DNA from: Capitulum mitella
Taxonomy: Eukaryota > Arthropoda > Thecostraca > Pollicipedomorpha > Pollicipedidae
Assembly: GCA_030062745.1 (NCBI GenBank)
Contig: CP099839.1
Location: 21,337,324-21,401,323 of the forward strand
Direction: 5' to 3'
DNA: 64,000 bases
The notes under the pieces are model-generated. The model made no database searches, was not told where the DNA came from, and was given only the letters and a program-made list of their open reading frames with translations. The translations under genes were made by a program, and so were the position numbers. Shown piece by piece: positions 33,705 through 48,700 of the stretch (positions are counted from its first letter, which is position 1; every line of letters starts with the position of its first letter).

Positions 33705-36700
33705 GTAAGATGGAATTAAGTGATTGTCAGAAGCAAATATTATAGCCCAGTCAGTTCAAAGGCAGGCATCCTGTGGCAGCTGTAAAGTAAATAGTGTGGA
33801 GGTTATTTGCTGCAGTGATTATATTTCCCTACTACATATTGATTACATCTGATTAATAACCCTTTAAATGTGGACTGCATGTTCTGATGTGGGGCTCAGA
33901 AATGCCTGTCAGTTTTGATGGCCCCCTTTTCTGACCAGAATTATTAAATAATAACTAAATGAATGTTGATAAAGCAGCATTGGGTAAACATGCAGCATGT
34001 CTGTGGTAAATTCCATTGTGATGAGAAAAGTTGCTTTCATTTTGCTCACGATAAAATGAAACATAGCTGTTCATAGTGATGGCCACAGAATATAGGCTGA
34101 TGTAGGTAATGCTTCATCCATATGTATAAAATCACTATCCATACATGGGTTTTAGTGAAAATGCAGTTTCAAAAGCCTGAAGTTTGCACAGCAGTATCAT
34201 GACTATGTTTTAGTATTGTCGTTATCAGGACATAAATGATGCGACTGACCGCGGCTGTGTGGACGGCCTGCCTCCTTCAGGGGCTGCCGAGATCACCAAG
34301 CTGACCGAGCCAGGCTTGGTGGACAGCTGCGACAATGTCACCATTCCGTGCGCGGCCCAGCCCGTGGACGCCACTATCTGGTGGACGAAGGACGGGGCCA
34401 ACATTTCGCTCTCGGATCGCGTCGCCGTAGTGCGCGAGACCAAGGTGCGCACCCCCCCCCCCCTCCCGCGACGGTAATCATCGCGTGCGCCGATGTCCGG
34501 CGCGTTCACTTTTAGCAGCTCCTCTGGGAGAGTCCTGGCCCGGTGTTTGTTTTGGTAGTGCCGTCGGGAGCAGGATTTTGATAGGCGCGAAAAGCGGCTG
34601 TCGGCTACCTGGCGTGGCCGGCATTTGACGGCCCGCAGCCCGCCGCTGTTTTTGCAGGTGTTTATTTTCAGTGACCCCGCCTCGCCACCGGTGTCTGCTT
34701 CTGTTTGACTCGGGTGCCGGCGTGGCCCTCGCTTGCGGCCCGCTGGAGCTGCCTGGACGGCGCGTGGCACGCGCGATTCCCCGCTGACCGTCGTCGTCGC
34801 TGCGTTCAGGACAAGTCTGTGGTGTCGCATCTGACGGTGGGGTGCGCCTTGCTGGCCGACCAGGGCAACTACACGTGCCACGTCTCGGGCGGCAAACAGA
34901 AGACGGTCACAATGCGTGTCAGAGGTGAGGCGGCACCGTCGGCTTCCGGCCACGGGGGGCGGCGTGAGTGTCCGATGCCCTCCGTTGGTCGTACGAGGCC
35001 CTTGTCTGTATTCCCTTGTGCCATTTTCGTTTACGTGAGTACTTTGTGTGGTTTGCAGGGATAACATGCACGGTCCTATCTGAAAGCGCGGCGAATGCAA
35101 AGCTTCGTGTTGGTAGAATTTTTTAGTGATTCGGCAGTAATGTTTTGACAACATTGCTTTCCAACCAACGATCATTGCATAAGTCAGTCTTGTGAATGTC
35201 GTCGACGTCGGGAGTGCTCTTTCTGACAGCAGCTCAGCCCGCCCTATGGCTGCCACGTATGTCCGATTTCTCGTGTGAATGTTGTTCGTGCCGAAGTTAC
35301 TCGGGTTTAGAGCTGTCTTGTATCGTCACAGTCCGCTGGGGTTCAGGGACCCTGGTCATTGCGCCATCTTCCCGGTGTGGTGTTCTGTCTGACGGCGTGA
35401 CTCGGTGGTGCGCGCAGACCTGCTCTTTGTGTCGGGGCTGTGTACCCTGTATTGCCAGTCAGATCGACGCCTGACGGTTGCGTGTGACTGGCCTGACGCT
35501 CGGCAGCGGGCCCGGAGCTGGTGTCCAGCAGTGACAGTCGGACGCAGGCCGGCGAGTCTGCCACCGTCAGTTGCTCCTTCCGCGCCAGCCCGCCGCCGAC
35601 CATCGCCTGGAGCGCCGGCAAACGGCCCATCAAGGACAACACGCTCAGGTGCGGCCGTCGTCCCGCACTCTTCCGCGTGGTTGGGGCAGGTTGCGATGGT
35701 TGCCGTCGGTGCTGATGGCCGTGATAGGTGTGCGACGATGTTGTCTGGGATGTTGGCCGAGTCACGCGCTTCATCATCATCATCATCTGGCCTTGGCTTT
35801 GCAGGCACTCGATCGCGGTGCGGAACGTCTCGGAGGCCGAGGTGGAGAGCCAGCTCACCATTTCCAACGTGTCGGCCAAGGATGGCGGCAATCTGACGTG
35901 CACTGCCACCAATGAGGCCGGCCGAGCCGAGCACACGGTTCACGTCACCGTCCAGAGTGAGACTGGGAACGGGGAGAGGTGTCACTGTTCAGAGTGAGAG
36001 TGGGGACGGGGAGAGGTTTCATTGTCCAGAGTGAGAGTGGGGACGGGGAGAGGTGTCACTGCCCAGAGTGAGAGTGGGGACGGGGAGAGGTATCACTGCC
36101 CAGAGTGAGACTGGGGACGGGGAGAGGTGTCACTGTCCAGAGTGAGACTGGGGACGGGGAGAGGTATCACTGTCCGAGTGAGACTGGGGACGGGGAGAGG
36201 TGTCACTGCCCAGAGTGAGACTGGGGACGGGGAGAGGTGTCATTGTCCAGAGTGAGACTGGGGACGGGGAGAGGTGTCACTGCCCAGAGTGAGACTGGGG
36301 ACGGGGGAGGCTTCACTATCCAGAGTGAGACTGGGGACGGGGAGAGGTATCACTGTCCAGAGTGAGACTGACGACGGGGAAGGCTGCACTGGCCAGAGGA
36401 TGCATCCGAGGTAGGGGAATTCCGAGCCACTGTCAGGTAGATATGGGACAAAGCGTAGCTCGGAGGGATAAAGAAAGGGGAGAAGGAAGGAGAGAAAGCC
36501 GGAAGAAAAGAAGAAGCATGCTGCCGACGTTTGCCGTGCCTGAGAAACGACTTGTATCAAAGAATTGGCTTACAGAGCTCTTTGCCAGGAACTCACTCGG
36601 TCACGTACCAGAATGGACGCCGAATAATTATGGAATATTGCATGTATTTACTGGCAGAATACCGCGCAGCTTGTTTCGAGGCTATAATTGTTATCTTGTA

Positions 36701-45700: not shown

Positions 45701-48700
45701 ACGTTGCCGAGCTGATGTCTAACTGCCTCAGGCATTACAAATTGGAGGGTAGGGTGTGAAGGGTGCAAATGTCATTGGTCGTACAGCACGAATTTCAGTC
45801 TACATCCTTGACACCTAACCGACTGAATTTGGCCACGCTGGTCTAACAAGCGTCCTGCCGTCGTTGGTACATCGTCTGACACTGATTCCCCGCACACACC
45901 GTTCAGCGGGTGCCGGGCCGGTACACCGCCTGACACTGACTCCCCGCACAGACTACATCCAGCGGGTGCTGAGCATCAGCCGTCCGCGCGCGGACGGGTC
46001 GGTGGAGATGCGGCGAATCACCCACCTGCACTACCTGGTCTGGAAGGACTTCATGGCGCCAGAGTACCCCACCGGCATCCTGCGCTTCATCAAGCGCATC
46101 AACGAGCTGTACTCGTTGGAGATGGGGCCCATCCTGGTGCACTGCAGGTGAGAGGTGTGGCCGGCGGGCCGATTGGTCGGCGAAGGGTGCCCAGCGGGCT
46201 CAGGCGGCCTGTGCGATTCGGGCAGGGCGCCGTCGCGGGGTTGTTTCAGCGTGGCCGGTCGGTCTTGTTTCAGCGCCGGCTGTTGGTTTTTGCCGTTAAG
46301 TTGTTTCGGCGTCGATGTCGGGCTGTGACGGCTTCGTGCGTTTCAGCGCGGGCGTGGGCCGGACGGGAACGCTGGTGGCCATCGACTCGCTGCTGCAGGA
46401 GATGGAAGAGGAGGGCGAAGTCACCATCTTCAACACCATTTGTGATCTCAGGCATCAGAGAAATTACCTAGTCCAGTCGCTGGTAAGCGTTTGGCTGGTT
46501 ATTTTGATGAGCTGGTTTTCGTGATCAGTCTGGGAATGGGCTGACTTCTTTGTTGGCATAAAAGGAAGTCTTTCTATCGATGTCTTACGGCGTTTGTGTC
46601 ACAAGCAACAAGCAAATGACCGTTGCTGGTCGACATATAGAAGTGTCTGATGTTAATGTACATTAGCAGCCATCTAATGTTCGGTAGAAAGTGTCTGGTG
46701 TTAATGTACATCAGCGGCCATGTAATGTTCGGCAAGTGGTACTCGGTGTCGACATCAGTGATTTGAGTCTGTGTTTCGGCCAACCTACGCTGCTGCAGGC
46801 CGTGTTAAAATTGCTGGACTCATTTCTACTCGGGCCGCTTTGGCGTACTATTCGCAGTCAGCGTGAACTTTTCTTTCTTATTGGGGCGAGTCCTTCCCTC
46901 TGGACTGCTATTCTTGGCATTTGGAAGCCTCTTAGGCTGAAGTTCGGCGTACAGTGTGCACTGTTCCCGTGTTGTGCTTGGCACGTCTGCGTTTGCCGCC
47001 TGCCTGCTGTGCTCACGTGGAGTGTGCGGGCGGCGGCGGTTCGCGCTCGGGGGGCGCGCCGCCGCCCTGCGTGACGGCGGCCGGTGGCTCCGTTCCAGAA
47101 ACAGTACATCTTCGTGTACCGGGCGCTGATGGAGCACGCCCAGTTCGGCGACACGGAGATCCCGGCCGCCAAGCTGGCGGCCACCTACCGGAGCCTGTGC
47201 GGCCAGGAGGCCGGCCGCTCGCGCACCCGGCTGGAGGACGAGTTCAGGGTGAGCGGCCCGGCCGGCCCGCCGAGCGCGCCAGTCGCGTGCCGTGCTGGGA
47301 CGCGGCCGTGCGCCCGTCTGCTCGTCGGCCTCTGAGAGCATGCTGCGATGCCGCGGTGAAGCGAGATGACGAGATAAACGTTCCGTCGTGCTGTCGGTTG
47401 AACTGTCCGGCAGGGCTTTTGTTTGCGGTGAAACCTGCGCTATGTTGGGGGAAGGACAGTTCATCACGGGGCCGTCCGAATTTTCTTCTCGTGGGCTGGA
47501 TGTTGCCGTAGGGCCTGACGCCACCGGCGGCCGGGGATGACGCTGCTCCCGCTTCCGACAGCGTCTGGGTGACGTGCTGGAGGAGCGCAAGGCATTCACG
47601 GTGGGCAGCAGCGAGGAGAACAAGGAGAAGAACCAGCTGGACTACATCGTGCCGTACGACGTGAACCGCGTGATCCTGGCGCCGCTGCCCAGCCGGCCGC
47701 TGGACACCTACATCAACGCCTCCTTCATCCAGGCAAGCGGCCCGGCCCGTCCACCGCGGCTGTGGTGTGTCTTGTGCCGTCCCTGGCATCGGCGGACCCG
47801 CTGGTTCTCGCCCAGGTCTGTCTTCGCAACACCTGCTTGTTGCCGAGTTTCTCCGGCCGTGGCTTGTCCGCAGATAGGAGGTGGGATGTGAATGTTAGCC
47901 CGGCTCCGTGGCGCGCCTCCGCCTGGCTTCGTCGCGTTCGTCCTGGCGTCAGTGCCGGACGGACGGCGCCCCGCCCCGGCCGCCGCTGACGCCGCCGCCC
48001 GCCACCGCAGGGCTACGACATCTCGGAGACGTACATCATCACCCAGGAGCCGCTGGAGCGGACGCGGGCCGACTTCTGGCGGATGGTGCTCGACCTGGAG
48101 GTGTCGGCCGTCGTCATGCTGGCGCGGGTGAGCGGCGGTCGGTGCTGTCTATCGGGCGCGGTGCGGACGGGGCGGCGCTGCGGACGCCTGCGGCGCCCCA
48201 TCCTGCCCGGCATAGATCCGTGTCGATGACCGGTCGCTGGCGGTGTCTTCGGCTGGTTGGTTGGTTGATTATTGGATTATTGAACAGCGCTTTCGACGGC
48301 CAAGGTCGTGTCGCCTCTCGCGCCGGCCGTCACGGGGGACGGCAAAATGTAGCTACTACCCGGACTCTGGGTGGGCACGTTCCTTTGACAAGGCGAACCC
48401 GGTAACCACTACATTGCGCCGCGCCCGGGGCGTTATCGTCGCTGTCTGTCCGTCGGGCGGCGGCCGCGCCGCGCCTGGAGGATCACGTGTCACCGCCGGC
48501 CGTCAGGGCCCCGGCTCCCGGCCGCCGGCCGACGCCGGCGACCAGCCGGACGCTGAGCCGGCCGCCGCCGAGCCATACTGGCCCGAGCTCGACCAGACCA
48601 TCACCCACGACCACATCACGGTCAAGTGCGTCAGCGTCAAGGACGTGGCCAAGGCCTACACCTGGCGCACGTTCAACGTCTCCAGCCTGAAGGTGGGCGC

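What the first reader, a model, noticed from the sequence alone, without database searches (positions are those of the whole stretch)
35944..45975. Four splice borders of one gene each carry tandem copies of themselves
In the Ptp69D gene the borders of exon 5 (donor), exon 12 (acceptor and donor) and exon 19 (acceptor) are each tandemly duplicated with unrelated units of 37, 64, 35 and 54 bases. In every case the unit includes the splice site and 13-20 bases of the adjoining exon, so the repeats look seeded at the junction itself. I saw nothing similar at the Myb, JMJD6 or SLC26 borders here. Tandem duplication of AGGT-containing exon sequence is an established model for intron gain. Here the process may instead be multiplying decoy splice sites or lengthening introns from their edges. 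I know of no named phenomenon matching this.
Basis: partly seen in the sequence, partly recalled or inferred. Interest (0 to 1): 0.85.

Follow-up and report, generated by a model that had tools for sequence, protein, structure and literature searches.

The report
Splice junctions multiplied in tandem arrays
In this animal genome many exon–intron borders, not only the four first noticed, have been copied head-to-tail into the neighbouring intron, leaving rows of spare splice sites; most likely they survive because splicing keeps using the copy next to the exon, so they are a natural test of how cells choose between near-identical splice sites.

Summary
A 27-exon receptor tyrosine phosphatase gene (one open frame, 1,372 aa) carries tandem copies at the four borders named (units 37, 64, 35, 54 bp; 13–22 exonic nt). 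The pattern is not special to this gene. In 18 gene models (window, a C2 block, PTP loci picked before seeing their repeats) the 40 exonic nt at the border have a copy in the adjoining intron at 14 of 280 borders; exonic nt 41–80 do at 0 of 272. Two myosin genes, prediction written first, gave 5 of 39 against 0 of 39. Of 68 copies located, 59 keep GT/AG. "Seeded at the junction" is only partly supported: copy frequency is about level from the border into the intron, while array edges are 3-fold denser in the last 45 exonic nt, about 2-fold after GC matching. Unit lengths, frames and splice dinucleotides look neutral. In 0 of 17 array-bearing introns are the two ends similar, so this is not classical intron gain. 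Best reading: frequent tandem duplication in GC-rich exon-proximal DNA, tolerated because exon definition keeps choosing the exon-proximal copy. No RNA data were available.

The parts
33626..55145 (+). Receptor tyrosine phosphatase gene (reader: Ptp69D), 27 coding exons
   Evidence: continuous frame; Pfam Ig, fn3 and Y_phosphatase, two stretches each. The name Ptp69D itself was not tested
35805..35956 (+). Exon 5; authentic donor CAGA|gtgaga at 35956/35957
35944..36398 (+). Array 1: 37-bp unit x 12.4 straddling the exon 5 donor (13 exonic nt); 10 of 10 copies located keep GT and equal the authentic donor score
40471..40796 (+). Array 2: 64-bp unit x 5.1 straddling the exon 12 acceptor (22 exonic nt); 3 of 3 copies located keep AG
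40775..40974 (+). Exon 12, flanked by unrelated border arrays on both sides
40957..41186 (+). Array 3: 35-bp unit x 6.6 straddling the exon 12 donor (18 exonic nt); 5 of 6 copies located keep GT
45866..45969 (+). Array 4: two diverged copies (54-bp unit) straddling the exon 19 acceptor; the upstream copy has lost AG
   Evidence: alignment score 58 against a shuffle maximum of 27
45952..46147 (+). Exon 19

Best explanation
Short tandem duplications (border units 23-76 bp) arise often in the GC-rich DNA in and next to exons of this genome and some grow into minisatellite arrays. A duplication wholly inside an exon would change the protein and is lost. One that straddles an exon-intron border is nearly harmless, because the exon-proximal splice site still works: exon definition pairs the sites closest across the exon, so the first donor or the last acceptor is used and all further copies are removed with the intron. 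Border arrays therefore accumulate about as freely as intronic ones and lengthen the intron from its edge; the conserved exonic copy also keeps them recognisable for longer. Shown here: the arrays, their recurrence, a copy frequency that is about level up to about 40 nt inside exons and nil deeper, copied sites mostly intact, unit lengths without bias to multiples of three, and array-bearing introns of 447 nt or more. Inferred: use of the exon-proximal site, neutrality, longer detectability, and the duplication mechanism (slippage or repair).
For: Exon-edge 40-mers with a copy in the intron: 14/280 in the first set and 5/39 in two myosin genes fetched after writing the prediction; exonic nt 41-80: 0/272 and 0/39. 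Same-method rate straddling the border 8.1%, intron offsets 7.0-11.4%. Introns of other genes reach score 26 in 0.27% (donors) and 0.07% (acceptors), own introns in 8/142 and 5/140. With sensitive TRF, array edges in mid-intron rise with GC, from 0.47/kb below 45% to 2.08/kb above 75%; with standard TRF the trend is uneven. Unit length is a multiple of 3 in 7 of 18; 16 of 55 located copies are in frame outside L030 exon 3, and 13 of 13 there, where the unit is 60 bp; splice dinucleotide retention has mean rank 0.59 over 8 arrays. Each of the 18 units leaves at least 13 nt of intron, and 0 of 17 array-bearing introns are under 250 nt against 12 of 136 of all. In human data exon definition prefers sites closest across the exon, with the switch near 250 nt (PMC9225289, abstract excerpt and passages).
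Against: GC matching leaves a roughly 2-fold excess of edges at borders (P=0.0125; 0.048 without the window gene; sensitive TRF P=0.0014 and 0.006), which I attribute to longer detectability without showing it. In the myosin replicate the border count (5/39) exceeded both the prediction (1-3) and the intronic rate (1-2 of 18-35 per offset). For donors the straddling segment has the highest rate near the border. No RNA-seq: use of the exon-proximal site rests on the protein frame only. The cross-exon rule comes from human data, and there, for acceptors, exon definition only reduces the preference for the upstream site.
Confidence: 0.6

Rival explanations
1. Junction-specific instability: something at the splice junction (for example R-loops or co-transcriptional spliceosome assembly on GC-rich DNA) makes the DNA there prone to tandem duplication, so arrays are born at borders and introns grow from their edges.
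For: Array outer edges per kb: 0.93 in the last 45 exonic nt, 0.57 and 0.60 in the two 40-nt intron bins next to it, 0.30 mid-intron; about 2-fold left after GC matching. Myosin replicate 5/39 borders, above the prediction. Older copies behind younger ones in L024. Donor-straddling segments 9.4% against 5.2% at +46.
Against: No overall peak in copy frequency at the border; exonic share of the unit 0.09-0.69, no fixed start; GC explains part; the fixed exonic copy should lengthen detectability (inference).
Confidence: 0.22
2. Selected decoys: copies are kept because spare sites buffer or regulate splicing, or feed new in-frame protein repeats.
For: 59 of 68 located copies keep GT/AG, and 52 of 68 score above the weakest 5% of this genome's own sites. 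L030 exon 3 has 13 located acceptor copies, all in frame (unit 60 bp).
Against: Dinucleotide retention not exceptional (mean rank 0.59); 7 of 18 units divisible by 3; copies decay in L024/L031; the nearest decoy of exon 12 is broken (+35).
Confidence: 0.08
3. Intron gain by tandem duplication of an AGGT-containing exon segment (Rogers model).
For: The units contain AG/GT and exonic sequence.
Against: The model predicts that both ends of the new intron are copies; 0 of 17 array-bearing introns show it. Paralogues have an intron at the same place without the array (VDDQ donor: seen in L032 only, of 6 paralogues, first 130 intron nt compared by eye).
Confidence: 0.03
4. Chance or artefact: wrong gene models, post-hoc picking, or assembly repeats.
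For: The gene finder was misled in and near arrays (for example L026, L030, L034), which I corrected by hand; the four in the window were picked post hoc.
Against: One continuous frame, Pfam domains, 0/311 interior controls, a replicate in another gene family, diverged copies, and a duplication shared by L024 and L031.
Confidence: 0.05

Closest known systems
[quoted passage not shown] human 6-16/IFI6 - gene name recalled)
   Same: By its title, a minisatellite offers several splice donors.
   Different: One locus (title only seen, in reference lists; paper not read). Here donors and acceptors, many genes, unrelated units.
[quoted passage not shown] ATP2A1; fission yeast 24-bp exonic repeats), as summarised in PMC4974935 (passages)
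   Same: Tandem duplication of a segment holding splice sites, silent after splicing.
   Different: Here only one end of the intron is multiplied; intron ends are not copies in 17 of 17 examined.
Cross-exon proximity rule in splice-site choice (PMC9225289, abstract excerpt and passages)
   Same: Competing sites flanking one exon; explains why the exon-proximal copy would win.
   Different: That work is on human alternative sites and minigenes; here natural arrays of up to about 14-17 copies.
CeRep25B intronic minisatellite near multiply spliced exons in C. elegans (PMC4039745, passages)
   Same: Intronic minisatellite linked to splicing regions.
   Different: One dispersed repeat family; here each array is made from its own junction.

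Membership tests
Minisatellite straddling a splice junction | Tandem units of minisatellite size that include the exon-intron border | tested here: met
Minisatellite straddling a splice junction | Copied sites are used as alternative splice sites in RNA | not testable with these tools
   no RNA-seq for this organism on hand
Intron gain by tandem duplication (Rogers) | Both ends of the intron are copies of one duplicated segment | tested here: not met
   0 of 17 array-bearing introns; 0 of 132 introns longer than 200 nt reach the 99.9% null score
Intron gain by tandem duplication (Rogers) | Intron absent in close relatives | tested here: inconclusive
   only within-genome paralogues seen; where compared they share the intron position
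Junction-specific duplication hotspot | Arrays start at borders more often than in GC-matched intron | tested here: inconclusive
   10 observed against 4.3 expected, P=0.0125; 7 against 3.3, P=0.048 without the window gene; no overall peak in copy frequency
Dispersed repeat family or introner-like element | Same unit at many loci | tested here: inconclusive
   one region (40900-41250) searched: 1 place in 477 Mb, but that tool skips simple repeats and common words; units differ between borders

The most novel reading that the evidence does not exclude
In this lineage splice junctions are duplication hotspots. Introns grow and turn over from their edges by repeated tandem copying of the exon-intron border, hidden from the mRNA by exon definition; roughly one exon edge in twenty is caught in the act, and intron sequence is replaced far faster than synonymous sites change.
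Probability: 0.22. Interest if true: 0.8.

Novelty: new variant of a known kind. Interest (0 to 1): 0.57.

Why it matters
A known single-locus case (a minisatellite offering several splice donors) appears here as a recurrent feature of one animal genome, on both donors and acceptors. It supplies many natural competitions between near-identical splice sites, up to about 14-17 in a row. With RNA-seq these would test how exon definition picks a site, how many decoys a gene tolerates, and how introns lengthen without harming the protein. It also warns annotators: the gene finder used here was drawn into arrays and invented protein repeats and insertions (for example L026, L030, L034).

Tried and rejected
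1. First, uncurated profile and array-relocation null: the latter's P swings from 0.004 to 0.47 with the allowed exonic overlap, so I replaced both with the sliding 40-mer test and the edge-density test. A first chaining scheme merged nearly everything on a strand into single genes and was replaced.

2. Gene-finder borders in or near arrays were wrong in L025, L026, L027, L030 and L034 and were corrected by hand from frame and PTP homology; L022 and L024 got an exon end extended. L026 927-1018, at first counted as border-straddling, is intronic. Short or doubtful exons were dropped in some loci; in the other window genes exons scoring 8 or less were left out. Of the C2 block only one predicted gene was used; its other low-scoring predictions and a false exon at 197255 were not. 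That gene's model was not otherwise curated.

3. For L036/L037, 3 of 42 borders were left out as uncertain, after the gene-finder and TRF output was seen and before the count.

4. Intron gain, selection for decoys and a multiple-of-three bias were tested and not supported. Of 10 arrays given to, 8 yielded 2 or more copies, and the L033 value is unreliable (an insertion shifts the register). Of 17 arrays, 16 yielded copies; the exon 19 pair gave none at the identity cut-off. In one search the exon 19 exonic part was entered as 20 nt; one search gives 18.

5. Counts are borders, not independent events. L024 exon 6 and L031 exon 6 share one duplication, and the L024 exon 6 border became testable only through L035, fetched because of the L031 array. 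One of the 19 exon-edge hits is GC-rich simple sequence. L036 exon 4 acceptor matches only exon nt 24-40, and L036 exon 8 donor only 15 nt. Inner ends of border arrays are counted among mid-intron edges, which works against the border.

6. Literature: searches listed no report of genome-scale junction arrays; the library holds open-licence PMC papers only, and I saw passages of five papers and listings of the rest. That the organism is a barnacle is a guess from recalled chromosome number and genome size, not tested.

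Full report
What is there. The window gene is a receptor tyrosine phosphatase of 27 coding exons. Joining the exons at splice sites read by eye gives a single open frame of 1,372 codons plus stop, with Ig, fn3 and Y_phosphatase domains, two stretches each. The borders on which the finding rests are therefore right. TRF lists arrays of 37 bp x 12.4, 64 bp x 5.1 and 35 bp x 6.6 at the exon 5 donor, exon 12 acceptor and exon 12 donor. 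The exon 19 acceptor pair aligns at score 58 against a shuffle maximum of 27. Five other arrays with units of 19 bp or more lie away from borders in this gene. With nine units dropped at random over the gene, 0.82 straddle a border on average; four or more do in 0.5% of trials. That test is post hoc, so I looked elsewhere.

Elsewhere in the genome. I took a 200-kb block of another contig and 13 loci around PTP-domain matches, chosen from coordinates before seeing their repeats. A small exon-chain gene finder was trained on the window gene and retrained on its own output, and its models were curated by hand: 18 gene models, 144 exons. Border arrays turned up in several. A gene in the C2 block (EGF-like cysteine pattern by eye, family not tested) has three acceptors so marked (76 bp x 6.6, 61 bp x 6.2, and a two-copy case 75 bp apart). 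L026 (LAR-like by eye) has a donor (56 bp x 2.1) and an acceptor (47 bp, 3-4 exonic nt). L030 has an acceptor with 60 bp x 13.8 and a donor with 55 bp x 2.1. Further cases are L022 exon 2 donor, L031 exon 3 donor, the exon 6 donor shared by L024 and L031, L032 exon 3 donor, L033 exon 4 donor (about 9 exonic nt, by eye) and L034 exon 3 acceptor. With the four in the window and one in L036 (below), that makes 18.

Controlled count. The last (donor) or first (acceptor) 40 exonic nt were aligned to the adjoining intron, with exonic sequence only, so that splice consensus cannot help. Score 26 or more: 8 of 142 donors (one of them GC-rich simple sequence) and 5 of 140 acceptors; exonic nt 41-80 of the same exons: 0 of 140 and 0 of 138; introns of other genes: 0.27% and 0.07%. 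Sliding the 40-nt query gave, at score 24 or more: 0/252 (query end 80 nt inside the exon), 0/272 (40 nt inside), 14/280 (at the border), 22/272 (straddling, +20), 19/264 (+46), 18/258 (+80), 19/244 (+120), 26/228 (+160), 21/213 (+200), 18/191 (+240), 12/170 (+300). So copying is about as common across the border as inside introns and stops about 40 nt into the exon. Split by type, donors show 9.4% at +20 against 5.2% at +46 and 8.5% at +160; acceptors rise from 3.6% at the border to 6.8% at +20 and 14.4% at +160.

Replicate. I wrote the prediction (about 5%, 1-3 of about 40 borders; none in exonic nt 41-80) in the notebook before fetching two myosin genes found by family search. Result: 5 of 39 borders, more than predicted; interior 0 of 39 and 0 of 33; intronic offsets 1-2 of 18-35. 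L036 exon 9 carries a donor array of 23/45-bp units (17.3 copies at the 23-bp period) with about 15 exonic nt. Of the other four, the L036 exon 2 acceptor match starts at the exon edge, the exon 4 acceptor match covers only exon nt 24-40, the exon 8 donor match is 15 nt long, and the L037 exon 9 donor has short degenerate copies. Pooled, 19 of 319 exon edges against 0 of 311 interiors (Fisher P=3e-6). One of the 19 is GC-rich simple sequence, and two share one duplication, one of them seen only because L035 was fetched to follow it.

Is the junction the seed? Two tests pull apart. Copy frequency has no overall peak at the border. Array outer edges, however, are denser there: 0.93 per kb in the last 45 exonic nt, 0.57 and 0.60 in the next two 40-nt intron bins, 0.30 in mid-intron, and none in 10.5 kb deeper in exons (one with the sensitive setting). 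Local GC falls along the same path (0.64-0.65 at the border, 0.51 at +200 nt). With the sensitive setting edges follow GC within mid-intron; with the standard one the trend is uneven. GC matching leaves 10 observed against 4.3 expected (P=0.0125), or 7 against 3.3 without the discovery gene (P=0.048); with the sensitive setting 25 against 12.6 (P=0.0014), or 18 against 9.2 (P=0.006). A residual of about two-fold is the size that the slower decay of exon-containing pairs could give (only one of the two copies is free to mutate); that is my inference. The exonic share of the unit ranges from 0.09 to 0.69 over 18 arrays with no fixed point, and at least 13 nt of intron are kept in each, as expected if only duplications that leave the authentic site intact survive.

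What the copies are like. In 17 arrays, 68 copies were located; 59 keep the GT or AG and 52 score above the weakest 5% of this genome's own sites. In exon 5 all 10 located copies score the same as the authentic donor. For eight arrays the splice dinucleotide is kept about as well as other dinucleotides (mean rank 0.59). Seven of 18 unit lengths are multiples of three, close to the one third of chance. So I see no sign that the copies are selected for or against. All 17 array-bearing introns examined are 447 nt or longer, against 12 of 136 introns under 250 nt overall (arrays themselves add length, so this is weak). That is the regime in which human work finds that the sites closest across the exon are favoured (PMC9225289, abstract excerpt and passages): first donor, last acceptor. 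For acceptors that paper reports the upstream preference as reduced under exon definition, so support there is weaker.

Time depth. Paralogues show the process at different ages. L024 and L031 share a 42-bp donor duplication, and L024 has further, more decayed copies behind it. The L032 copy at the VDDQ donor is not seen in five paralogues (first 130 intron nt, by eye). L031 exon 3 has copies for which L024 shows at most a trace. L022 has a complete exon 2 donor copy where L023 keeps only its first bases.

What it is not. In the AGGT model of intron gain (PMC4974935, passages) both intron ends descend from one segment; none of 17 array-bearing introns shows that. One array region searched against the genome gave a single place, so a dispersed element is unlikely, though that search skips common words and only one region was tried.

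Standing. A minisatellite that provides multiple splice donors in an interferon-induced transcript was published in 1995 (title only), so the kind is known. Its frequency here, on donors and acceptors of unrelated genes and with units that differ from border to border, is what I did not find in print (searches; open-licence PMC only). How common it is in other animals was not measured, since no other eukaryotic genome was on hand. Use of the sites in RNA is untested.

Noticed in passing
L022 vs L023 (C4) and L024 vs L031 (C5), paralogous PTP gene pairs: Exons are 97.3% and 97.7% identical (third codon positions 5.2% and 5.4% different), yet 7 of 12 introns give no blastn match and the other 5 only partial ones. 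Introns turn over far faster than synonymous sites, or exons are homogenised by gene conversion.
   Followed up: partly
L030:3220-4046: 60-bp x 13.8 acceptor array whose unit is a multiple of three and mostly open in the exon's frame; use of upstream copies would add 20-aa repeats to a PTP protein.
   Followed up: partly
window 5733-6288: Pure (TC)278 tract; also a (GTCT)31 tract at 38931-39054 in the phosphatase gene.
   Followed up: no
window 43590-43890 and 54340-54720: Large parts of two introns look like very degenerate GACCGTGA-type repeats, perhaps decayed arrays; the first runs close to the exon 16 acceptor without entering the exon (by eye).
   Followed up: no
window 47732/47733; L022 exon 7 donor: GC-AG introns (CAG|gcaagc; ACAG|gcgagt).
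   Followed up: no
own genome, PF00102 matches: Clusters of related PTP genes on C4 and C5 (for example C4:4.14-4.16 Mb, C5:24.15-24.48 Mb), suggesting recent expansion.
   Followed up: partly
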